Shown one piece after another: positions 49,593-60,525 of a DNA stretch of 64,000 nt. The notes under the pieces were generated by a model, which had not been told where the DNA came from, made no database searches, and saw nothing but the letters and a program-made list of their open reading frames with translations. This DNA is from Pyrinomonadaceae bacterium. GTDB lineage: Bacteria > Acidobacteriota > Blastocatellia > Pyrinomonadales > Pyrinomonadaceae. The stretch spans positions 1 to 64,000 of the forward strand of contig JABARP010000002.1 of the NCBI GenBank assembly GCA_019186825.1, in the 5' to 3' direction. A program made the translations under genes and the position numbers. Numbering within the stretch: position 1 is the stretch's first letter; every line of letters begins with the position of its first letter.

Positions 49593-52541
49593 TTAGAAGC
49601 TAAAGCGGACCTGGAGCTCGATTCGGCGGTTTGCTGATCCACCAGAACCGCCGAATCTACCGAATCCGCCCGACGTGCTGGTCGATTGGCCGAATCGGCT
49701 TGAGCTGAGACTTGAAACCGGGTTTCCAAGATTCACGGTATTCAAGAGATTTGAAAAATTGACCGAGAGGTTAAGGTTGTACGGCTTGCGTCCGCTGCCC
49801 ATACCACCGAAGAATCCGCCGCGGCGCATCATCATTCCACCGCCTGCACCGGAATCTTGTGCATTCTCGTTGGTCTTTCCGAATCCGAAATTCTTCCCTA
49901 CGCGTAGGTTGACCGAGAAGCTTCCCGGGCCCTCGCCGAAGTTACGCGGAATGATCGCATTCGGGTCCTTGCCCGAAACATCGCAGAAAGCATAGTGCAA
50001 TCCCAGCTCTGCACAGCGGGCAGCCAAGGCTCCGTAAGTCGGACGCTCCGTTAGGTATCCATCGCCGTTAGAGTCAAAGCCGGTCGTGATATTGAACGGG
50101 CTTCCCGACGATGCGAAGATGAACGGATTGAGCGATACTCCCCACGGAAGCCCGATGTTTCCGCCGATCACGAAGCGATGTCGAACGTCGTCGCCCGCTC
50201 GTCCCCATTCACCCGCAAAACTATAGCTGTACGCCGGAGCACTGCCTGCACCGTCCGTGTCGCTTTTCTCGAAGCTGAGCGAATAGTTTCCAAAGAACGA
50301 GAACTTTCTCGAGTAATTGTTCCTAAACCCAATGCGGATCTGATTCGACGATGATCTGCCGGTTGCCTCGTATTGCTGGATGTTTCCAAGCGTCGGGTCA
50401 GGCCTCGGGGCAAGCGAGCAGTCAAGCTCGGTCGGGCAGATCGGAGCATTGATGTTCCGCGAACGAAGCTGATTGTACGACTTCGAGATAATGTAGAACG
50501 CCGAGAGCGTCGTCTTGAAAGGCAACTGCCGTTCGACGCCGACCGTCGCCTGCGCGGTATAGGGCGTCTTAAGATCAGGAGCAATGAGCCGCGTCGTGCT
50601 AGAACCCGGAAGAACCGCTAGGATCTGCGAGGGCGTAAGAACGTTCGACACCGAGCCGTCTGGATTAAAGATCGGCTGTGCAAGCAATGCGATGGCTGCG
50701 GCTTGACGCCCCGGATCGGTTTCGTTCGCACTTACGAGAAGGTTCAACTGCGTGATCCCGTCATATCGATGCGCCTGCAGCGTGTAGTTCTCGCTGAAGC
50801 GGTTATAGAAGATGCCCGCGCCGCCGCGAAACACGGTCTTCGCCTGCTTCGAACCGCCAGCTCCCGGCGACCAAGCAAATCCGAATCTCGGCGCAAAGTT
50901 ATAGTCGCTCGAGATGTTCGTCTGATTTTCGTATCGAAGGCCAAAGCTAAGTAGAAGCTGGGGCGAGACACGCCAGTCGTCCGAAACGAAAAGTCCAAGG
51001 TCCTGTTGCGAAACGCTTGCGAGCGGATCGCCGGTTGTCATCGTGAACTGCGTCGGATCGTACTGTGTACCGACCGCACCCAGGAGTTTTGCACGGTACT
51101 GTTCTATAGGCGAGACAAACCCGTCCCCGTTCAGGTCATACGGGCTAGCCCCGACGAATCCCAGGAAGCTAAAGGTCCCGCCATAGTTGTTCTCTGACCG
51201 ATTGTCGATCTTTGTACCGCGGAGCCTGACACCAAACTTGACCGAGTGCTCCATATTCTTGCCCAGAGCGGTCGTCGTATTGTTCGAGATCTCGTATCTC
51301 TGGCTTTCATTGTAGCTATCGCCGATCTGTGCTCCGCCGCCCGTAAAGGCAGACGAGACATTGATCGTCGGGATCGAGTTATCACCCTTCTGGCCGCTCT
51401 TGTCGAACGAATAGCTGAATCGCGTTTCATTCACGGTCTTCGCATTCAAGATCGCCGTCTCAGTGACACGGAGGTCATGTCCAAAGCTTGTCGAATCATA
51501 CTGACGCGAAGCAAGCGACGTCCCGCCAATTCCCTGGTTCTTGCTCGATGAACGGTCGTAGTCGTATCGAACAATAAGGGTGTTCTTATCGTTGATCGAA
51601 TAATCGAGTCGCGGGCCGATCGAGAACCGACGTGTCGGGACTTTATAGTCCTGCGAAAAATTAACGATGTTCAATGAAGGGTCGAGCACGACCGCGTTCA
51701 CGATCGTATTGTTGTCGATATCGCGATTCGAAATATCTACGAAGAAAGATGCCTTCTTCTTGATGATCGGACCCGAAATATTGCCGCCGAAGAAACGCGT
51801 CTGGCTCGGTGCACGGTTCGCAGCGAACGGATTGCGCGAGTTCAACCTTGCATCGTTGAAGTTAAAGAACGCGCTTCCGCGGAAACGGTCGGTTCCCGGC
51901 CGCGTCAGGATCTCGATCCTGCCCCAGCCCAAACGATCGAATTCGGCCGAAAATGGATTCTGATTGATCCGTATCTCACGGATCGATTCTTTTGGCGGAA
52001 GATTACCACCTGTAAAACCATCAATATAGATCTGGCCGCCATCCGGGCCCGATCCCGGACCGGCTAAGGCCTGAAGAGCCGATTGAAGCTCATCCGGATC
52101 GTCCGGCAGAGCATCGAGGTCCTTGCCCTTGAGGACGGTGGCACTCGCGTTGCTGTCTGGTTCGGTCGATACGCCCTGGTCAGTAGTGACGTTAACGGTT
52201 TCCGTCACGCCCGCGACCGTCATCGATACGACCAACTCTTGCTTCTCACCAGCCGCAAGTACGACATCCGGGTTCTCATACGGGGCAAAGTTCGGTGCCT
52301 CCGCTGTAACTGTATAGGTGCCGGCCTGAAGGTTCGCGATCGAAAATTCGCCGCGAGAGTTCGTAACCGCCTTTACTTCTTTGCCTTCTGCATTTACCGC
52401 TTTGACGGTCGCACCCACGACGACCGCTCCAAGACTGTCAACAACTTGACCGGTTATGCTCGCCGCCTTTTGCGCAAAGGCTCCGCCCGCAGAGAAAAGC
52501 AGCAAGGCGCCAAGCAGAGTTATCTTCTTTATGTAGTCCAT
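49593..52541 (-). CDS. TonB-dependent receptor with carboxypeptidase regulatory-like domain
   Basis: 982 residues. Signal peptide (MDYIKKITLLGALLLFSAGG), regulatory-like domain (about 27-110: SITGQVVDSLGAVVVGATVK), plug (about 125-235: LKGKDLDALPDDPDELQ, IYIDGFTGGNLPPKESIREI, GRIEILTRPGTDRFRGSAFF) and barrel to a terminal aromatic (RRIELQVRFSF), typical for outer-membrane insertion. An unusual Met/Gly/Arg-rich stretch (GGGMMMRRGGFFGGMGSGRK) lies near residue 930. The DUF5666 gene is 32 bases upstream and a terminator follows, so the two form an operon. Ligand unknown. It is shorter than the receptor at 1-2858. Confidence 0.94.
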   Translation of the reverse strand: MDYIKKITLLGALLLFSAGGAFAQKAASITGQVVDSLGAVVVGATVKAVNAEGKEVKAVTNSRGEFSIANLQAGTYTVTAEAPNFAPYENPDVVLAAGEKQELVVSMTVAGVTETVNVTTDQGVSTEPDSNASATVLKGKDLDALPDDPDELQSALQALAGPGSGPDGGQIYIDGFTGGNLPPKESIREIRINQNPFSAEFDRLGWGRIEILTRPGTDRFRGSAFFNFNDARLNSRNPFAANRAPSQTRFFGGNISGPIIKKKASFFVDISNRDIDNNTIVNAVVLDPSLNIVNFSQDYKVPTRRFSIGPRLDYSINDKNTLIVRYDYDRSSSKNQGIGGTSLASRQYDSTSFGHDLRVTETAILNAKTVNETRFSYSFDKSGQKGDNSIPTINVSSAFTGGGAQIGDSYNESQRYEISNNTTTALGKNMEHSVKFGVRLRGTKIDNRSENNYGGTFSFLGFVGASPYDLNGDGFVSPIEQYRAKLLGAVGTQYDPTQFTMTTGDPLASVSQQDLGLFVSDDWRVSPQLLLSFGLRYENQTNISSDYNFAPRFGFAWSPGAGGSKQAKTVFRGGAGIFYNRFSENYTLQAHRYDGITQLNLLVSANETDPGRQAAAIALLAQPIFNPDGSVSNVLTPSQILAVLPGSSTTRLIAPDLKTPYTAQATVGVERQLPFKTTLSAFYIISKSYNQLRSRNINAPICPTELDCSLAPRPDPTLGNIQQYEATGRSSSNQIRIGFRNNYSRKFSFFGNYSLSFEKSDTDGAGSAPAYSYSFAGEWGRAGDDVRHRFVIGGNIGLPWGVSLNPFIFASSGSPFNITTGFDSNGDGYLTERPTYGALAARCAELGLHYAFCDVSGKDPNAIIPRNFGEGPGSFSVNLRVGKNFGFGKTNENAQDSGAGGGMMMRRGGFFGGMGSGRKPYNLNLSVNFSNLLNTVNLGNPVSSLSSSRFGQSTSTSGGFGRFGGSGGSANRRIELQVRFSF

Positions 52542-52573: not shown

Positions 52574-53779
52574 TTAGAAGCCGCTTCCGTCGAGGCCGGG
52601 AATCGTAAATGAACCTTCCAGGCCGCCGCGATTGCCACGTCCCTTACCCGAACCCATCTGAGCGAGGCGAAGGAACGGCTCAACGCCTGCGAGAAGCTTG
52701 AATGCCGTAACATGGCCCGAAGCATCTTCCTTTGTGCTCGAAACCGCGATCGAGTCGCCGGGTTTGAGATCAGCCGTCGTTATGGTCGGAAAGCGGTCCA
52801 ACTTCTCGTCAACGCCGCCGCGCGGCCCGCCATTCATCCCACCGGGACGCTGCCCGCCGGCCCAACCACCGGGACGCTGTCCGCCACCTTGGCGAGGTGA
52901 CTCGGCACCCGAAGGCCTGCCTTGCCCTCCGCCGGCACCTTGGCCGCCGTTGAGCATCGCTGCCTGCATACCTGCGAGGCGTTCGGCATCCTCTGCCGGA
53001 AATCGCTTGAATGTGGTCACCTTGCTGGTTGAGATCGTAACGTCCTTGCCGGTTGCAAAATCTGAAATAACGACCTCGTTCTTCCCTGCATCAACGGACT
53101 TAACTGTCCCTGCGATGGTCCTAAACGACCCGACAAGCACTTTTTCGGCCGTGAATGTGGTGTTATCGGCTCCGCGGTCACCGACCGCCTTCAACATATC
53201 GCCGATACCAATACCCAGAAAATCGGTCGGCTTTGCGTCCTCAAACTGAACGGAATCGTCTGCATAATGCAAGAACTGCGCATTCGGCTTGAATGAGATA
53301 ACGACCGATTGAGAACTCATCAGCCCGCTCACCTTGATCGTTACCGTCCGGTTGATCGCATCGATAGACTCGACCTTTCCGGAGATTCCGCGGGTCTTCC
53401 ATTCGGAAGCTTCTTTTGCTTCTTTTGCCGAAAGTTCAGCACTGCTGACGAGATAGCTGCGAATTGCGTTGCATCCGCCGTCCGCCTTGATCAGACAGGA
53501 GACAATGAGTTTATCGCCGACCTTGATGTCAGCAATGCTCGAAGGGGTAGCCGACCGAAGATTCAGATCCGGAGAGATCTTTTTGTATTCGGTCTTCTCG
53601 GAGAACTCTGCTTTGACCGTCTTCCCGTTCGCATTCAGCGTAGCTGAATCGCTGGAAACCGCCGTTACATCACCGCGCACCAGGACCGGTTTCATGGGGT
53701 CAACGGTCTGTCCGAAGATCTGCGAAACCAAGGCGCTTATAAAAAGTATAAAAATGGATATGATAGCGTTCTGCGTCAT
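52574..53779 (-). CDS. Exported protein with repeated DUF5666-like domains
   Basis: 401 residues with a signal peptide (MTQNAIISIFILFISALVSQ, cleavage near IFGQ). Three related beta-barrel units of about 70-80 residues (PVLVRGDVTAVSSDSATLNA; TRGISGKVESIDAINRTVTI; IAGTVKSVDAGKNEVVISDF) have the DUF5666 pattern. A low-complexity Gly/Gln/Pro/Arg segment (about 280-325) interrupts the third unit, which finishes with KPGDSIAVSSTKEDASGHV. The C-terminus (GLEGSFTIPGLDGSGF) is also Gly-rich. The fold suggests ligand or metal binding outside the cytoplasm, but the function is unknown. It is the first gene of a two-gene operon with the TonB receptor. Confidence 0.82.
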   Translation of the reverse strand: MTQNAIISIFILFISALVSQIFGQTVDPMKPVLVRGDVTAVSSDSATLNANGKTVKAEFSEKTEYKKISPDLNLRSATPSSIADIKVGDKLIVSCLIKADGGCNAIRSYLVSSAELSAKEAKEASEWKTRGISGKVESIDAINRTVTIKVSGLMSSQSVVISFKPNAQFLHYADDSVQFEDAKPTDFLGIGIGDMLKAVGDRGADNTTFTAEKVLVGSFRTIAGTVKSVDAGKNEVVISDFATGKDVTISTSKVTTFKRFPAEDAERLAGMQAAMLNGGQGAGGGQGRPSGAESPRQGGGQRPGGWAGGQRPGGMNGGPRGGVDEKLDRFPTITTADLKPGDSIAVSSTKEDASGHVTAFKLLAGVEPFLRLAQMGSGKGRGNRGGLEGSFTIPGLDGSGF

Positions 53780-53895
53780 ATAGAGTCGTTCCCCCGGTAA
53801 AAGGGTATGACGTAAATACTAGCAGTTAGGTTCGACTTATAATGTAAAGTTGTGTCAACCTTGCGCAAAGATTGCAAAAGAAACGGGAAATTTGC

Positions 53896-54858
53896 CTAGT
53901 TCCGGCCCAATTCCACCTTTGAAGCAGCCATCACGATCAGGCCTATACCGAACGCAAATGTTGCAAACAAAGCGATTGGCCAGATGAGCGGCAGTGAGAG
54001 CACGAGCGTCCAGACAAGGACGCCGGTCAAGGTCGCAAGCGTTTCGGAGCGGTTATTGTCAGGGAATGCGGTCCTTTGGATCCATTTGCCGAGGGAAACA
54101 TGAAGTGCGATCCGGCCAAAAACATACCCAAAGAGCAATAAAAGCAGACAAAGGCCGATAGCGGCCGCTGAGAGAAAATTCGGCAACATCATTGCACTCG
54201 CGACAACAACAACGCCGGTAAACATAAATACACCAGCCCCGATCGCTCCGATCTTGACAGGTGTTAGGTTAAGCTTCGCCGCAGCTCGCCCGACCGCTCC
54301 CGGAGCTATCGTTGCAAAAACTATGGAGATTATGAACCAGATGAGAGCGAGTACAAGCCTCTGTGCGAAAAAAGCCAGTGAAACCGAAGGCGAAAGCAGG
54401 CTAGACGGATTCTGAGCGATACCCTTCAACTGTTCTTCAAGCATTCCGAAGACGACGGTCTGCTTCCCTTCTTCACGGGCAGGCTTCTCAGCCTCCGACT
54501 TATACGAGCCGCCGATCACGATAACGTCTCCGCCGACGTATCCGTCCCGCTTTTGAACCACGTTTCCGCCGATCGTCGCGACATCGCCTTCGATGCGGCC
54601 CTCGACGACAACGTCGCCGCCGACCGCAAGGACTCCCTTCGCACATTTTCGAACGGTAACGGATTTCCCGAACGCGTACACCTCCTGCTCAGGAGCGTCG
54701 CCCACGGTGATCATCTTTTGGTCCTCAGAAACGGATATCTCGGGGTGTGCAAAAACGGACTGCGAAAGGGCCGCGACGCCTATCAGTAGCAATAGAAAAC
54801 TGAATATCGTCCTTCGGCGCTTCGCACCAGGAGTTTGGGGGCTAAGTTCACGTTTCAC
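53896..54858 (-). CDS. Membrane protein with bactofilin-like N-terminal beta-repeat domain
   Basis: 320 residues. A leader helix (about 15-37) precedes a region (about 65-125) of short beta-repeats resembling the polymer-forming bactofilin/DUF8173 type (GVLAVGGDVVVEGRIEGDVA, TIGGNVVQKRDGYVGGDVIV). After a linker, about four to five transmembrane helices follow (about 170-320). Its start lies three bases after the anti-sigma stop, so it is the last gene of the sigma operon and a likely effector or partner of that regulatory pair. Similar proteins are common beside ECF sigma/anti-sigma pairs in Acidobacteriota and neighbours; the function is unproven. Confidence 0.8.
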   Translation of the reverse strand: MKRELSPQTPGAKRRRTIFSFLLLLIGVAALSQSVFAHPEISVSEDQKMITVGDAPEQEVYAFGKSVTVRKCAKGVLAVGGDVVVEGRIEGDVATIGGNVVQKRDGYVGGDVIVIGGSYKSEAEKPAREEGKQTVVFGMLEEQLKGIAQNPSSLLSPSVSLAFFAQRLVLALIWFIISIVFATIAPGAVGRAAAKLNLTPVKIGAIGAGVFMFTGVVVVASAMMLPNFLSAAAIGLCLLLLLFGYVFGRIALHVSLGKWIQRTAFPDNNRSETLATLTGVLVWTLVLSLPLIWPIALFATFAFGIGLIVMAASKVELGRN

Positions 54859-54861
54859 GGA

Positions 54862-55437
54862 TCAGAAAAGGGGACGCAAGATCTTGCGGAAAGGTATCAG
54901 CCTTACCGCAAGGAAGAGCATACCGGCTGCTCCAACGACCCCGAACATCGCCATAATCTCGCCGGTAGGTGCCAGAATACGTACAAACGACCGTACAAGG
55001 ACGACAACTCCGATCAGGAAGGAATATGCCATCTGCGTAGCAAATGCCCCGATCGCCGCGATCTTCTGCAAGAGTGACCCTGCGGCACCAAAAAGCTCCA
55101 TACCTTCAGCACCAAGTATGAAGAGCGAGAAAAGGAGAAGCGAACTAATAATAAAGACGGCGTTAAAACGTTCTTTCCAGGGACGAAGCCCGACAACGTG
55201 ATTCTCGGCCGTCGTTACGATCTTTTTCGTAAAGTCATGCGGGAGCTCAAGATCCTTGTCCGGGCCGCGAAGGCCGGTCTCCAGCAATCGCAAGAACTGT
55301 TTCTGGGCATTCAATTCACCACGACAAGCCGAACACACAGCAACATGGCTCTCGACCGCCTGATCAGCGTGCGCGTCCAGCTCGCCGTCAACATAACCGG
55401 CAAGGTCGAATTTTTCGCAATCAGCTGCGCCCATCAT
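54862..55437 (-). CDS. Anti-sigma factor with zinc-finger (ZAS) domain
   Basis: 191 residues. The ZAS motif H31-x3-C35-x2-C38 (SHVAVCSACRG) with Cys7 lies in the cytoplasmic N-terminal part, followed by about three hydrophobic helices (about 90-190). Such proteins hold their cognate ECF sigma at the membrane until a signal frees it. The start overlaps the stop of the sigma gene by one base (TGATG), and the bactofilin-like gene follows three bases after its stop. Confidence 0.9.
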   Translation of the reverse strand: MMGAADCEKFDLAGYVDGELDAHADQAVESHVAVCSACRGELNAQKQFLRLLETGLRGPDKDLELPHDFTKKIVTTAENHVVGLRPWKERFNAVFIISSLLLFSLFILGAEGMELFGAAGSLLQKIAAIGAFATQMAYSFLIGVVVLVRSFVRILAPTGEIMAMFGVVGAAGMLFLAVRLIPFRKILRPLF

Positions 55438-56042
55438 CAGATCCCGTCAAACCCTCGCTTAACAAAAAGTTCGCGCATCATTTCGCGTGCGCGGAATAGC
55501 CTGTTCTTCACCGTACCAAGCGGAAGTCCGGTAATGTCCTTGATCTCGTCGTAGCTAAGATCGTGCGAATGCCTCAGAACGATCAGATCACGGTAAGCCG
55601 GCGGCAAACAACGCACTACGGATTCGATCTCTTTCCGCCATTCATTTCGCTCCCGCTCTTGCTCCGGATTCGGTGCTTTCGATTCAAGCTGCAGTTCGAA
55701 CGCGCCTTCGTCATTCTCTGTCTCAATACTTTGGGTCGAGATGGCATTCCGACGGATATGATCGATCGCCGCATTATGGGCAATGCGATAAAGCCAGGTC
55801 GAGAATTTGTAATCCGAGCTATATTTGTTTAGCGAGTTGTAAACCTTTATGAAGACTTCCTGCGTGACGTCGAGCGAAGATTCAAAATCGCCGAGCATCC
55901 TGTAGATGTAGCCGGTGATCGGCCGCTGATACCTTCGCACCAGTTCTTCGAAATGATCGTTCCCGCCGCGCAGCGACGTCGCAATAAGCTCCGTATCAGA
56001 GAGCTCGGCGACCTGAACAAGGCTGATCGAGGCAGAGGTCAT
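55437..56042 (-). CDS. ECF sigma factor (RpoE-like)
   Basis: 201 residues. Sigma region 2 (about 25-95: FEELVRRYQRPITGYIYRML, SSLDVTQEVFIKVYNSLNKY, FSTWLYRIAHNAAIDHIRR) and region 4 (about 140-192: LPPAYRDLIVLRHSHDLSYD, LPLGTVKNRLFRAREMMREL) are complete, with no region 3, as in ECF sigmas. An acidic linker separates them. It is translationally coupled to its anti-sigma factor. The PilM-like gene ends 37 bases upstream on the same strand, so read-through from the secretin operon is possible. A conserved ECF-type promoter upstream could not be identified by eye. Confidence 0.95.
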   Translation of the reverse strand: MTSASISLVQVAELSDTELIATSLRGGNDHFEELVRRYQRPITGYIYRMLGDFESSLDVTQEVFIKVYNSLNKYSSDYKFSTWLYRIAHNAAIDHIRRNAISTQSIETENDEGAFELQLESKAPNPEQERERNEWRKEIESVVRCLPPAYRDLIVLRHSHDLSYDEIKDITGLPLGTVKNRLFRAREMMRELFVKRGFDGI

Positions 56043-56079: not shown

Positions 56080-57018
56080 TCAGGCCGCAACTTTCGCCGC
56101 CTGTGAACCGAAATGCAGCGATGCAAGTCCTGCGGGTGCGGCCAACACGTCAAAAGCGAGTCCCGTTCCCGATAGGTCAAGACCAACGTCAGCTGCATCC
56201 ATGACATCGACCTCGCGCCCGAATGCCTCCGCGGCCGCGGAAAGGACGTCATTGCGTGCGATCTCCTCGCCAATAAGCAGGATATTCTCGAGGACGCCGC
56301 CGTACCTGTCGTGATAGAACATCAGGAGCCGATAGATCTCATTTCCGGCCTCGGCCGGCGTGCATGTTACCGACCGGACGACGGCCGGTTCACCACCACG
56401 GAGAAGAAGGCCCGAAAATCCGCCGGGCTGAGCACTCAACAAAAGTGCGTCTCCGGCAAACGCATGGTAAAGCCAGGCTGCCTCGCTGATCACACGCGGC
56501 AGAACCAATCCCGCACGGCGTCCGAACCGCTCAAATATATTCTCGTATTCGTCGATCACCGCAAGGCGGATCGCCGTCGTAAAATATCGCGATCTTCCCT
56601 CAACGTCGTTCGAGATCTTCCTTCGCGACATTCTCAGTTCCGACGCGGCGATGCCAAAGGTCTGCTCTGCCTTCCAGTCGAATATCTCCTGCCATTCCTG
56701 CTTCGACGATGGTTCGGTCTCTAGCGTAACGATCGCTGTTCGGGCCGAACTCCCGGGCAGCGAGACCGACCAACGCTTTTGATTCAAGAGTCCTGCAGCC
56801 GCCAGAACGTCTTCAAGGCAGCGTATGAATGCCGATTCGTCCAGAATATTCTGTTCGAAAAAATCGCCCTTGATCGAACCGGACGGTGTCGCATTGGAGG
56901 CACATTGCCTCACCCGAAGGCCGCCGCGACCGCCCTCAAGAGCGACCGCAGTTATCGAACGTTCTTCAATTCCCAGGCCTGCATTGGGATAATTTGGCGA
57001 AGTAAGAAATTCGAACAT
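56080..57018 (-). CDS. PilM-like actin-fold protein of a type IV pilus/type II secretion-like system
   Basis: 312 residues. The N-terminus GLGIEERSITAVALEGGRGG resembles the first strands of PilM/GspL cytoplasmic domains (ASKHA fold); WSVSLPGSSARTAIVTLETE and the GEEIARNDVLSAAAEAFGRE segment fit the same fold. It would sit at the inner membrane and connect cytoplasmic and periplasmic parts of a pilus-like machine. The start overlaps the stop of the pseudopilin gene by one base. No separate PilN/PilO genes follow; the sigma gene comes next. Confidence 0.8.
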   Translation of the reverse strand: MFEFLTSPNYPNAGLGIEERSITAVALEGGRGGLRVRQCASNATPSGSIKGDFFEQNILDESAFIRCLEDVLAAAGLLNQKRWSVSLPGSSARTAIVTLETEPSSKQEWQEIFDWKAEQTFGIAASELRMSRRKISNDVEGRSRYFTTAIRLAVIDEYENIFERFGRRAGLVLPRVISEAAWLYHAFAGDALLLSAQPGGFSGLLLRGGEPAVVRSVTCTPAEAGNEIYRLLMFYHDRYGGVLENILLIGEEIARNDVLSAAAEAFGREVDVMDAADVGLDLSGTGLAFDVLAAPAGLASLHFGSQAAKVAA

Positions 57019-57422
57019 CAGTATTTTGAATACTCCTTGCCGTTGCTGTCGGTGCCTTCCGCCGTGCTCTTTACATCCTTGAGCCCGGTCTCACCTTCCT
57101 TTGCGGCCGGGTCGTCGCCCTGAATTTCGTTCCAGTCGGTCGATTCCGTTACCGGATCCATCGGTCGGTCGCGAAGATACTTCTCAGTAACGAGGTCATC
57201 GATGCTCTTGGGAAGGTGGCCTTTGTCGGCGTAGAACTGGTCGATCGCGCGTCGCATCTGCCAAAGATTCTCGCTAAGTACGGTTTCCTTCGCGTGCTGA
57301 ACGCTCCTCTGGTATGTCGGTATCGCAACCGAGATCAAGATGATCAGGATGAACATCGCGATCATTAGTTCGAGCAGCGAGAAGCCGCCCATTCGCTTTT
57401 GACCGCACAATCTTTTAAGCAT
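57018..57422 (-). CDS. Type II secretion pseudopilin, GspG-like
   Basis: 134 residues from ATG at 57422 (an upstream TTG at 57428 is less likely, since the ATG overlaps the previous stop as TAATG). Prepilin signature GGFSLLELMIAMFILIILIS with cleavage after the second Gly and Glu at +5; the N-terminal helix is followed by a GspG-like body (MRRAIDQFYADKGHLPKSID, DPVTESTDWNEI). Such proteins build the periplasmic pseudopilus. The processing peptidase (PilD/GspO) is not in the window. Confidence 0.92.
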   Translation of the reverse strand: MLKRLCGQKRMGGFSLLELMIAMFILIILISVAIPTYQRSVQHAKETVLSENLWQMRRAIDQFYADKGHLPKSIDDLVTEKYLRDRPMDPVTESTDWNEIQGDDPAAKEGETGLKDVKSTAEGTDSNGKEYSKY

Positions 57423-58045
57423 TACCAATCAGAGTATTTCTCGCCGTTGAGCGCCTCCTGATCGGAGGTCGATCTAATATCGAAAACATTGATATTGTCC
57501 CAGGTATCAGCGTCCTTTTCCTGATATGAGGACCGGATCTTCCACTCGGTCTTGCCCGTCATTGGATCGACCGGCAACTCACGTAAGTAAACCTTCTTTC
57601 GCTCTTTGTTCTGGTTAATGTCAGTGGCCTGTTCATCGTCGTCACCGAGGCCGCGTCCGCCGCGGACGTCTGCACCTCGTGGACGCACCTTTACTCCATC
57701 GACAAGCACCTGCAGGCTCGGCGGAAATCGGTCGATATTATCGGTCGTAAAGATCGTACAGTCGTCTATTACGACACGGCTACGCGGATCGACGGGAATA
57801 TTTCCGCCGGGAAGCGTCCGATTTCCCGATGAGACCGCACCTTGCGGACACGCTCCGAGCGAATCACGTTTGAATTCATCGATCGCACGCCGCACGTCTC
57901 GAAGAGTTTCGCGAAGGCGCGTTTCCTTCTCGCGTTTTGCAGCGTTCTGAGCAAGCGGTATCGCCCCCATCACGAGTATCGCGAGCACACTAAGCGTCGC
58001 GACGAGCTCAAGAAGGCTATACCCTTTTTGCTGCGAAAACCTCAC
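57422..58045 (-). CDS. Type II secretion pseudopilin, larger GspG-like
   Basis: 207 residues. A short leader and prepilin motif QQKGYSLLELVATLSVLAIL (cleavage after Gly8, Glu at +5) precede a helical stem with many charged residues and a larger, Arg/Asp-rich C-terminal body (about 70-207) containing a possible disulfide (GACPQGAV, DDCTIF). The C-terminal LRELPVDPMTGKTEWKIR is the GspG-type calcium/fold motif. It overlaps the secretin gene by four bases and the next pseudopilin by one, so this is a translationally coupled set. Confidence 0.92.
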   Translation of the reverse strand: MRFSQQKGYSLLELVATLSVLAILVMGAIPLAQNAAKREKETRLRETLRDVRRAIDEFKRDSLGACPQGAVSSGNRTLPGGNIPVDPRSRVVIDDCTIFTTDNIDRFPPSLQVLVDGVKVRPRGADVRGGRGLGDDDEQATDINQNKERKKVYLRELPVDPMTGKTEWKIRSSYQEKDADTWDNINVFDIRSTSDQEALNGEKYSDW

Positions 58046-60525
58046 TTCCCTTCCGTCGAGACCGCTACCGGAATATTCCGTCCATCCGCCGTCATTAAAT
58101 TCAAAATATCGCTATCAAGGGCTATCTGCGGCACACCGTCGGCAAGCGCTTCCACCTCGATATATGCAATGACACCGGTCGTGGCAACCGGCTTGCCATC
58201 GGCAGCGATCATCGAAAAATATGTCTTTCCGTCGGTGTTCAAGAACGGCATCACAGCCGAATTGGCCTTCTCGCCGAATGCGTCACCCAGGGTAATCCCG
58301 CGAACTGCAAGTTTTGTCGGGTCGTACTTTATTCCCATCACAGCCGAACGAAATGCCTCCGGGCTCGAAAACGCGACCGCAATACGCGTCTTCTCCCCAC
58401 TCTTTAGCTCAGCGGCCGAAGCAAGGTTAATAGACGCCGTTGAAGCAGCCGCACTAAGAGGTTTGAAGGCTACGGCCGAGGGCGAGTTGTCCGGACGATC
58501 CGCTGTCTCGGTCAGCTTCAGCGTACGCACCGAACTGTCGATGGGTTTGACCGTCGGAGTTTCAGGGATTTCCGCAACAGCCGCTACATTCGGTTTTGGA
58601 TCCGTCGAAGCGGTCGCATCGGCAGGAGGCGTCGCCGTCGGTGTTTGGGATTCCGCGGTCGCGTCCGTTCGAACATACTGCGGCGACTTTTGATCCGGCA
58701 GGTCGATCACGACATTCGTCGGCTTTCGGCGTGCAGCAGCGAGCATTTCTTCGCGTTGCTCCTCGATCAGCATTGCCTCGAGCTGGCCGCTGGTCGGCGT
58801 CGCAAGGCTTCCGGTGTCTTGTTCAACAAGGTCTTCAGGAAGAATGGCCGGAGCTCGTATCACCCTCGGTGTCACCGCGATCACGATATCGACCTGAGTA
58901 TTCTGCTTCTTCGGCGCAGTAAAAAGCCGTCCGAGGATCGGGATCAGACCCAACAGCGGCAAACCCGTCCTTCCGTTCGATTCGTTATTTTGTGCGACAC
59001 TCGCAAGAAGAAGCGTCTTGTTATTCTGCACGCGGGCGGTGCCCTTGATCGTGCGTTCAGTAAAGATCGGTGTGAATGGATCAGGCCCGGAGCCGATATC
59101 TTTCGATTCGATCTCCATCGCGACCTGCACATCCTGATTCGGGAACACGATCGGCTTGAATTTTAGCGACAGGCCAACCTTTTCGTAATTGATCACATTC
59201 GAAACAACACCGCCGTTTCCCTGCGTTGTTCCGGTCACGAACTGAGCACTTTGCACAGGCACTCGCTGACCTATCGTGGCAGACGAATCTTCATTGTTGA
59301 ATGCGTGGATCTGCGTCGAGGCTACAAGCTTAGTATTCGTTTTGCTCTGAAGAGCAGCGATCGAGCTAATCGGGAGTCCGATCGCGATGCTCAAAAGGTC
59401 CGTACCCTTGAACGGCAAACCGTCCGTGATCGGGCCTGTCGAACCTTGGTGAACTGTCGGAAAACCGACGCCGCCAATATTGAGGAGCGTTCCTTTGTCG
59501 CCGCCCGTTCCGAGCTGATTGCCGAATTGGAGCAGGTCACCGCGATTGACCTCGTAGATCGCGACGTCCATTACGACCTCTGCTCTGTCCTTATCAAGGG
59601 CTTTGATCAGCCTGCCAATGATCCGCACGTTTTCCGTAGTGTCGCGAACCGTAACGCTGTTCGTTGCGTCGTCCGTCAGGATGATCGTCTGAGAGCGACC
59701 GCCCTGCGCTGGAATGGCACCCTGAATGACCTTTTGAACGTCTTTGGGACTGGCGTTTGCAAGATAGAACGTCTTGAGGACAAGCTGTTGGAGAATGTTT
59801 CGCCGAGAGTTATTAGCTACGAGTATCGTCCGCGGCCCGACCTTCTGAAAGAACAGGCCCTCCTGCAGAAAGATGTAATCGAGTGCGCGAGCGGCGGTAA
59901 CGTTGTGAAGCTCGATCTTGACCTTCTTCGAGTCAAGCCTTGAATCCGCGTCAAAAAGGACGTTCAGATCGAGATCTTTCGCAAGCTTCTTGATAATGAA
60001 CGTCAGGTCGATGCCGGCCGGAAATGGGACATCACCGAGCACCTCTAGTTGCTGCGGCAGCTGTACGTCGTCCGCTTTGTAAGCTGCGGGCTTTACCGGG
60101 AGGCCCGACGCGGTCGTTTTTGAACCATCGGCCGAGTTCGCATCTTTCTGGAGCCGCACCATCCGCTCCATCTCGCTCTTGGCGAGTTCATTCGTTGGAT
60201 CGAACCCATACGCACGCCGAAATGCGTTGTACGCACCGGCAAAATCCCTTTCCTCGGCCGCAGCAGTCCCGCGCTTCATATACATCTGCGAAGCGTTGAA
60301 CAGGGCACGCCGCAGGTGAAGACGATACTCCGGATTCTTCGGGTTTTCGTTGACCGCGAGGGCAAATTCCTCACAAGCCTTGTCCCACTCTTCAGAGACC
60401 TCGTATTTCAGGCCCTGCTTGAAATGCTTTTTGCCGTCGCCGATGCCAAGGGCAAACGTCGGCGAGAGTAGTCCAAAAAGCAGGACAAACGTCAAGGTCA
60501 TACGGAATACCGCTGTTCTTTTCAT
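58042..60525 (-). CDS. GspD-type secretin with N-terminal TPR and C-terminal cohesin-like domains
   Basis: 827 residues from ATG at 60525, where a signal peptide starts (MKRTAVFRMTLTFVLLFGLL). A TPR-like region (about 30-125: KHFKQGLKYEVSEEWDKACE, AGAYNAFRRAYGFDPTNELA) precedes STN/N0 (about 155-230), N1 (about 235-320) and the secretin core (about 400-590) with VPVQSAQFVTG and the closing LPLLGLIPILGRLF, DIVIAVTPRVI. After a Thr/Ala/Pro-rich linker (about 600-690) the last about 120 residues look like a cohesin domain (SGEKTRIAVAFSSPEAFRSA, VIAYIEVEALADGVP). It forms the outer-membrane gate. Related T2SS/T4P ATPase and platform genes are missing here. Confidence 0.9.
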   Translation of the reverse strand: MKRTAVFRMTLTFVLLFGLLSPTFALGIGDGKKHFKQGLKYEVSEEWDKACEEFALAVNENPKNPEYRLHLRRALFNASQMYMKRGTAAAEERDFAGAYNAFRRAYGFDPTNELAKSEMERMVRLQKDANSADGSKTTASGLPVKPAAYKADDVQLPQQLEVLGDVPFPAGIDLTFIIKKLAKDLDLNVLFDADSRLDSKKVKIELHNVTAARALDYIFLQEGLFFQKVGPRTILVANNSRRNILQQLVLKTFYLANASPKDVQKVIQGAIPAQGGRSQTIILTDDATNSVTVRDTTENVRIIGRLIKALDKDRAEVVMDVAIYEVNRGDLLQFGNQLGTGGDKGTLLNIGGVGFPTVHQGSTGPITDGLPFKGTDLLSIAIGLPISSIAALQSKTNTKLVASTQIHAFNNEDSSATIGQRVPVQSAQFVTGTTQGNGGVVSNVINYEKVGLSLKFKPIVFPNQDVQVAMEIESKDIGSGPDPFTPIFTERTIKGTARVQNNKTLLLASVAQNNESNGRTGLPLLGLIPILGRLFTAPKKQNTQVDIVIAVTPRVIRAPAILPEDLVEQDTGSLATPTSGQLEAMLIEEQREEMLAAARRKPTNVVIDLPDQKSPQYVRTDATAESQTPTATPPADATASTDPKPNVAAVAEIPETPTVKPIDSSVRTLKLTETADRPDNSPSAVAFKPLSAAASTASINLASAAELKSGEKTRIAVAFSSPEAFRSAVMGIKYDPTKLAVRGITLGDAFGEKANSAVMPFLNTDGKTYFSMIAADGKPVATTGVIAYIEVEALADGVPQIALDSDILNLMTADGRNIPVAVSTEGK

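What the first reader, a model, noticed from the sequence alone, without database searches (positions are those of the whole stretch)
56080..60525. Mini secretion operon: cohesin-tipped secretin, two pseudopilins, PilM
The four genes overlap by 1-4 bases, or 'TGATG/TAATG' junctions, yet lack GspE/F ATPase and platform. The secretin adds TPR at its N-terminus and a cohesin-like domain after a Thr/Pro linker, which could bind dockerin-like partners at the outer membrane. This might be a lineage-specific type II secretion variant.
Basis: partly seen in the sequence, partly recalled or inferred. Interest (0 to 1): 0.55.

Follow-up and report, generated by a model that had tools for sequence, protein, structure and literature searches.

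The report
One fragment of a scattered secretion machine
These four overlapping genes look like one third of a protein-export machine found widely in the Acidobacteriota, whose outer-membrane gate carries an unusual cohesin-fold domain; the parts that seem to be missing sit elsewhere in the same genome.

Summary
Secretin D, pseudopilins G1 and G2, and PilM-like M overlap as GTGA, TAATG and TGATG. D's C-terminal ~130 residues are predicted to fold as a cohesin (pLDDT 89.8; best match Z 14.6), and M as PilM (Z 24.1).

It is not a stand-alone mini system. The same genome carries a detached F-E pair (platform, ATPase; contig C13) and a detached N-O-P-G3 block (contig C2). All ten genes lie together in another family of the class (L129). 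D, F and N lie within 12 kb of one another in 63 of 95 genomes outside the class for which all three were printed, but are apart in all 10 genomes of this genus. On a D tree, loci without F-E form one clade.

So this is one third of a type II secretion-like machine, widespread in the phylum, with GspL split into M plus N, and a secretin with an N-terminal TPR and a C-terminal cohesin.

Dockerin partners are not supported: Pfam finds none in this genome, and dockerins do not associate with D (59 of 157 genomes with D, 16 of 41 without). By analogy the cohesin should face the periplasm. Its partner and the cargo are unknown.

The parts
58042..60525 (-). D: GspD-like secretin, 827 aa, with signal peptide, N-terminal TPR and C-terminal cohesin
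   Evidence: 73 related loci
60175..60426 (-). TPR region of D (residues about 34-117)
   Evidence: TPR_2 at 34-64 and TPR_19 at 90-117, both below cut-off; TPR_2 matched in 52 of 57 relatives
59818..59967 (-). STN / N0-like domain of D (residues 187-236)
   Evidence: STN E 0.007, below cut-off; matched in 45 of 57 relatives
59581..59775 (-). Secretin_N domain of D (residues 251-315)
   Evidence: over cut-off
58855..59355 (-). Secretin barrel domain of D (residues 391-557)
   Evidence: over cut-off
58441..58692 (-). poorly conserved Thr/Pro/Ala-rich linker of D (residues about 612-695)
   Evidence: read from the sequence; low conservation in the 64-protein alignment
58048..58440 (-). cohesin-fold domain of D (residues about 696-826)
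   Evidence: PF00963 38.6 bits; AlphaFold2 pLDDT 89.8; cohesins as best matches
57422..58045 (-). G1: pseudopilin, 207 aa, GTG start overlapping the stop of D
   Evidence: N_methyl 23.5 bits, cut-off 21.2
57018..57422 (-). G2: GspG-like pseudopilin (ATG at 57422; possible TTG at 57428)
   Evidence: N_methyl over cut-off; best NCBIfam GspG 37.3 bits, below its 88.85 cut-off
56080..57018 (-). M: PilM-like cytoplasmic protein, 312 aa
   Evidence: AlphaFold2 pLDDT 90.0; 2ych_A PilM-PilN Z 24.1

Best explanation
The four genes are one block (outer-membrane secretin D, pseudopilins G1 and G2, PilM-like M) of a type II secretion-like machine that is widespread in Acidobacteriota and whose locus has broken into three in this genus. 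The other blocks in the same genome are F-E (platform and assembly ATPase, C13:103.7-106.7 kb) and N-O-P-G3 (PilN-like, GspM-like, GspC/PilP-like with an IPT/TIG domain, third pseudopilin; C2:167.6-170.9 kb). Inferred working: the ATPase E, held by M-N-O at the platform F, builds a short pseudopilus from G1, G2 and G3, which pushes folded periplasmic proteins through D; P links the inner-membrane part to D; the one prepilin peptidase found (C8) would be shared with the type IV pilus. D's cohesin, on a flexible linker after the barrel, most likely hangs on the periplasmic side as a ring of docking domains that anchors the pore or holds a client; its partner is unknown and probably not a classical dockerin. 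Shown: gene content, predicted folds, orthology of the detached blocks, conserved order. Inferred: that it secretes proteins, and the place and role of the cohesin.
For: Own E is 58-80% identical to the E beside D in the other loci read, own PilB 35-47%. E lies directly upstream of D in 33 of 73 related loci; 32 with room have none, 8 are too short. A profile made without own N scores own N 5.6e-17 against 1.1e-4 for the pilus PilN, and one made without own O scores own O 1.3e-14. In L129 the run N-O-P-G3-F-E-D-G1-G2-M spans 11 kb, and its N, O, P and G3 each hit own N, O, P and G3 best (E 4.3e-15, 3.7e-10, 6.3e-22, 4.3e-17). Linkage: D, F and N within 12 kb of one another in 63 of 95 genomes outside the class; D-F near in 12 of 12 other class genomes, apart in 10 of 10 of this genus. 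Best-ranked NCBIfam families: D GspD, F GspF, G2 GspG, O GspM; the O of L129 passes the T2SSM_b cut-off.
Against: D, E, F, G2 and O all score below the curated cut-offs of their best NCBIfam families, and E is tied between GspE (545.1 bits) and PilB (544.6). Own P was not recovered by the profile made from other classes (E 0.26). Own N and O are below Pfam's cut-offs. In L133 and L136 the F beside D is slightly closer to own PilC than to own F. Separate M and N genes are the type IV pilus arrangement. No cargo was identified and nothing here shows secretion. Outside the class, some 'apart' calls may be contig breaks.
Confidence: 0.75

Rival explanations
1. The three blocks form a second type IV pilus-like filament (adhesion or DNA uptake) rather than a protein secretion machine.
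For: M, N and O are separate genes as in type IV pili; M's best fold match is pilus PilM; E scores alike for GspE and PilB; F of L133 and L136 is slightly closer to PilC.
Against: The genome already has a pilus set with PilB and PilQ over their cut-offs; no PilT-like gene was seen beside F-E, D or N-O-P-G3 in this genome, and in the 20 loci only L138 has a PilT-like neighbour; best-ranked families of D, F, G2 and O are type II.
Confidence: 0.15
2. The four genes are a stand-alone system that borrows the motor (PilB, PilC, PilN, PilO) of the type IV pilus.
For: No E, F, N or O lies beside them in this genus; T4P genes are present.
Against: Detached orthologues of the E, F, N, O, P and G3 that accompany D elsewhere are kept in the genome; N was found in 22 of 22 and F in 22 of 22 class genomes (F counted by the high-scoring rows).
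Confidence: 0.05
3. One reading: the cohesin of D binds dockerin-bearing proteins and displays or holds them at the outer membrane.
For: The domain is a cohesin by sequence and predicted fold. One protein of the genome (C12, 2931-residue open frame with two cohesin matches) has a duplicated dockerin-like motif, seen by eye only.
Against: No PF00404 match at E<=1 in this genome; dockerins in 4 of 22 class genomes while D is in 22 of 22; across 198 genomes 59 of 157 with D and 16 of 41 without D have dockerins, Fisher p 0.86; Pfam reports no dockerin family in the C12 segment, which matched only itself in the genome.
Confidence: 0.1

Closest known systems
Type II secretion system (Gsp)
   Same: GspD-, GspE-, GspF-, GspG- and GspM-like parts rank best in those families; pseudopilins; a GspC/PilP-like protein; a prepilin peptidase in the genome. 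A relative, Pyrinomonas methylaliphatogenes, is annotated with a five-gene type II system (PMC4644332, passage).
   Different: Below the curated cut-offs; GspL is split into M and N; secretin has an N-terminal TPR and a C-terminal cohesin; P carries an IPT/TIG domain; locus in three pieces; three pseudopilins found in all.
Type IVa pilus (PilB-C-M-N-O-P-Q)
   Same: Separate PilM- and PilN-like genes; M is a PilM fold.
   Different: The genome has a distinct pilus set with its own PilQ and PilB over cut-off; D scores 96.1 bits for PilQ, cut-off 284.35; own E is far closer to the E beside D than PilB is.
Cellulosomal and non-cellulosomal cohesins
   Same: Fold over nearly the whole domain: best Z 14.6, rmsd 2.5 over 126 residues; Pfam cohesin over cut-off.
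   Different: About 11-22% identity in the listed matches; fused to a secretin; no dockerin partner found.

Membership tests
Type II secretion system | GspD-type secretin | tested here: inconclusive
   GspD is the best-ranked family of D, but 139.5 bits against a cut-off of 351.35; Pfam Secretin over cut-off
Type II secretion system | GspE-type assembly ATPase | tested here: inconclusive
   C13 E: GspE 545.1 bits (cut-off 630.25), PilB 544.6; 58-80% identical to the E beside D in the other loci
Type II secretion system | GspF platform protein | tested here: inconclusive
   GspF best, 299.2 bits (cut-off 424); T2SSF over cut-off
Type II secretion system | Major pseudopilin GspG and minor pseudopilins | tested here: inconclusive
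   G2 best GspG, 37.3 bits (cut-off 88.85); G1, G2 and G3 carry N_methyl over cut-off; full H-I-J-K set not searched for
Type II secretion system | GspL and GspM | tested here: inconclusive
   O: GspM_XpsM 34.1 bits (cut-off 60), T2SSM_b over cut-off for L129 O only; no fused GspL, but PilM-fold M and PilN-like N
Type II secretion system | GspC | tested here: inconclusive
   P has a transmembrane start, Pro-rich linker, TIG domain and a GspC/PilP-like tail by eye; no GspC family reported
Type II secretion system | Prepilin peptidase in the genome | tested here: met
   Peptidase_A24 at C8:69255-69662, over cut-off
Type II secretion system | Secretion of folded proteins from the periplasm | not testable with these tools
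   needs an experiment
Type IVa pilus | Secretin PilQ at curated cut-off | tested here: not met
   D 96.1 bits, cut-off 284.35; the genome's pilus PilQ scores 327.2
Cohesin (PF00963) | Cohesin sequence profile and fold | tested here: met
   38.6 bits, cut-off 24.1; predicted fold, Z 14.6 to 5nrm_A
Cohesin-dockerin system | Dockerin partner in the same genome | tested here: not met
   No PF00404 match at E<=1; one dockerin-like motif by eye on C12, not seen by Pfam
Cohesin-dockerin system | Dockerin-binding surface residues | not tested
   no residue-level comparison of the binding face was made

The most novel reading that the evidence does not exclude
Across much of a phylum the type II secretin carries a ring of flexible cohesin domains on its periplasmic side that bind a non-classical, dockerin-like signal on exported proteins or on the envelope, so that a cohesin-type lock takes part in substrate selection or pore anchoring in protein secretion.
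Probability: 0.15. Interest if true: 0.75.

Novelty: new variant of a known kind. Interest (0 to 1): 0.42.

Why it matters
It turns an apparent minimal four-gene secretion operon into a complete but scattered machine, which matters for annotating secretion in an abundant and little-cultured phylum: tools that look for one locus would call this genome incomplete. It also shows a widespread fusion of a cohesin fold to a secretin without matching dockerins, a concrete lead on what cohesin-like domains do outside cellulosomes, and a readable order of locus breakage (N-O-P-G3 away from D in most of the class, F-E away from D only in this genus's clade).

Tried and rejected
Dockerin partner: PF00404 gave nothing in this genome and no association with D over 198 genomes. 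A dockerin-like segment seen by eye in a 2931-residue open frame on C12 was followed with Pfam (no dockerin family reported) and a search of the own genome (only itself).

Stand-alone operon: rejected after finding orthologous E, F, N, O, P and G3 in the genome. PilM by sequence: Pfam gave only E 0.25, so the predicted fold was used. P by a profile from other classes failed (E 0.26); it was recognised only by direct comparison with L129.

vWA-protein genes beside the F-E block and the N-O-P-G3 block (and by eye; the latter TIGR03436 64.4 bits, below its 81.25 cut-off) were noted but their conservation was not tested. An Oar/TonB-type barrel downstream (49593-52541) was considered because a TonB-dependent transporter is needed for PopC secretion in Myxococcus (PMC6434023, search listing and start of abstract only); a functional link was not tested.

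Papers: searches returned 0 papers each for their term sets. One search returned 13 papers on non-cellulosomal cohesin with dockerin; passages of one, on Planctomycetes (PMC6461901), were read and concern other proteins. One search returned two; passages of both were read. Denise et al. 2019 (PMC6668835) was read in passages only; its main text has 0 occurrences of 'Acidobacteria'. The review of non-cellulosomal cohesins (PMC3035643) is not held, so it may already list such secretins.

Rows left out: the D alignment holds 64 proteins (window plus 63 of 73 loci; incomplete or ambiguous ones dropped); A3 holds 57 of those 64; A2 holds 50 (window plus 49 of 57 M); A1 holds all 64. The linkage count outside the class uses only the 95 genomes whose D, F and N rows were all printed; unprinted rows were not counted, and contig breaks can look like separation. 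In the tree 29 leaves are 'no E' (window included), 28 'E', 7 too short to judge, of which 5 fall in the 34-leaf no-E clade and 2 among the E loci; the root was set on one sequence (L082) and the no-E node shows no support value after rooting (its two halves 1.0 and 0.965). Proteins of L127-L146 are longest open frames from a simple caller, so starts may be off and some genes were missed by it (for example G2 in L131). Pilus genes in this genome other than PilB, PilC, PilN and PilQ were named by eye.
Full report
What is there. On the minus strand, 56080-60525 holds four genes: D (secretin), G1 and G2 (pseudopilins) and M (PilM-like), with overlaps GTGA, TAATG and TGATG. The coordinates given are exact. 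Pfam sees Secretin, Secretin_N and Cohesin over cut-off in D, TPR_2 and STN weakly, and the pilin leader in G1 and G2. M is nearly invisible to Pfam (PilM_2 E 0.25).

Folds. The last 143 residues of D, predicted from 64 aligned sequences, give pLDDT 89.8. Foldseek ranks cohesins first (6kgf_C, E 1.4e-8), and the second aligner gives 5nrm_A Z 14.6, rmsd 2.5 over 126 residues, with cohesins or cohesin-like modules filling the printed rows. M, predicted from 50 sequences, gives pLDDT 90.0 and is a PilM fold: 2ych_A Z 24.1, ahead of FtsA at 20.5 and the cytoplasmic domain of EpsL at 13.4.

Conservation. A scan of genome contigs gave 73 loci, whose record titles name Acidobacteria, Blastocatellia, Pyrinomonadaceae or Chloracidobacterium (one says only 'bacterium'). 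Where contigs reach, the neighbours D-G1, G1-G2 and G2-M are kept in 58/58, 55/55 and 50/50; an ECF sigma factor follows M within 1.5 kb in 42/47. The upstream side comes in two states: E lies upstream of D in 33 loci, 32 have room but no E, 8 are too short. The 29 loci with CinA are not among those 33. On a tree of 64 D proteins the no-E loci form one clade that includes the window, so F-E was most simply separated once in this sample; the node itself carries no support value, its two halves 1.0 and 0.965.

The missing parts. The window's genome (3.2 Mb, 28 contigs, 95.4% complete) has three secretins, an F-E pair on C13 without other parts of the machine within the 17.9 kb read, and a type IV pilus in two other places: PilM-N-O-P-Q on C3 and PilB-T-C on C2 (several of these named by eye). 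A weak PilN hit led to C2:167.6-170.9 kb, with N, O, P and a third pseudopilin G3 in a row. One prepilin peptidase was found, on C8. The detached genes belong with D, not with the pilus: own E is 58-80% identical to the E beside D in the other loci read, and own PilB only 35-47%; F is clear in the class (44-59% against 30-34% for PilC, L127-L131) but not outside it, where two of the F beside D (L133, L136) are slightly closer to own PilC. An N profile made without own N scores own N 5.6e-17 and the pilus PilN 1.1e-4; own O scores 1.3e-14; own P was not recovered this way (0.26). In L129 (genome G121, another family of the class) N-O-P-G3-F-E-D-G1-G2-M lie in one 11-kb run, and its N, O, P and G3 each hit own N, O, P and G3 best.

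Distribution. In 198 genomes of the window's phylum (Acidobacteriota by the titles) D is found in 157, N in 166, and F-like proteins, PilC included, in 197. In the class (22 genomes) F is apart from D in 10 of 10 of this genus and near D in 12 of 12 others; N is apart from D in 21 of 22. In the window's genome the separation is real and no contig break: D, F-E and N all lie well inside their contigs. Outside the class, of 95 genomes with all three rows printed, 63 have D, F and N within 12 kb of one another, 26 have F-N together and D apart, 4 have all apart, and 2 have D-N only; some of the last three groups may be contig breaks, but in G034 and G056 D lies hundreds of kilobases from F-N on one contig, so breakage has happened more than once. 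Pfam detects cohesin in 15 of 21 D sampled over the phylum (window included) and in 23 of 57 close relatives; the C-terminal domains of all 64 close relatives align with 22-76% identity to the window's, so the others most likely keep a diverged copy.

Dockerins. None in this genome at E<=1. In the 198 genomes 59 of 157 with D and 16 of 41 without D have one; Fisher p 0.86. This argues against classical dockerins as the partner. A single dockerin-like duplicated motif, seen by eye on C12 inside a giant protein with two cohesin matches, is a lead only.

What it is and how it works. The best-ranked families (GspD, GspF, GspG, GspM for O; E level between GspE and PilB) fit a type II secretion-like machine with a split GspL. 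D, E, F, G2 and O are below the curated cut-offs, so I call it type II-like rather than a certified member. By established knowledge of solved GspD structures, the chain after the barrel lies on the periplasmic side, so the cohesin is more likely a periplasmic docking or anchoring ring than a surface tip; this is inference.

Comparison with print. A paper on Pyrinomonas methylaliphatogenes names a five-gene type II secretion system (PMC4644332, passage), and one on the GAL08 group names type II secretion genes (PMC8787282, passages). The survey of type IV filaments describes type II systems outside Proteobacteria and sets gspD as a loner in its model (PMC6668835, passages). My searches found no held paper with their terms together; the review of non-cellulosomal cohesins was not available. 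The system is thus known in outline; the cohesin-bearing secretin and the stepwise scattering are the parts for which I found no description.

Noticed in passing
window 52574-56042: Downstream of M lie an ECF sigma factor, a zf-HC2 anti-sigma protein, a 320-aa protein with no Pfam family (53896-54858) and a DUF5666 protein. Where contigs reach, sigma follows M in 42/47, anti-sigma follows sigma in 40/41 and the 320-aa gene follows it in 36/36 of the related loci; not seen in L127-L130 from other families of the class.
   Followed up: partly
window 49593-52541: A CarboxypepD_reg plus outer-membrane barrel protein of the Oar/TonB type lies after the DUF5666 gene and matches 18 of the 73 related loci, mostly cut by the locus end.
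   Followed up: no
L094:504-9299 (own genome, contig C12): A 2931-residue open frame with two cohesin matches and, between them, a duplicated dockerin-like motif that Pfam does not report.
   Followed up: partly
L093:5425-7540 and L150:9021-10208 (own genome): vWA-type proteins sit beside both detached blocks, F-E and N-O-P-G3; chance adjacency was not excluded.
   Followed up: no
L091:7933-9618 (own genome, contig C2): A third secretin (561 aa) with no recognisable pilus or secretion genes in the 18 kb read around it.
   Followed up: no
genomes G034 and G056 (family f11): Here D is far from F and N on the same contig while F and N stay together, an independent breakage of the same locus.
   Followed up: no
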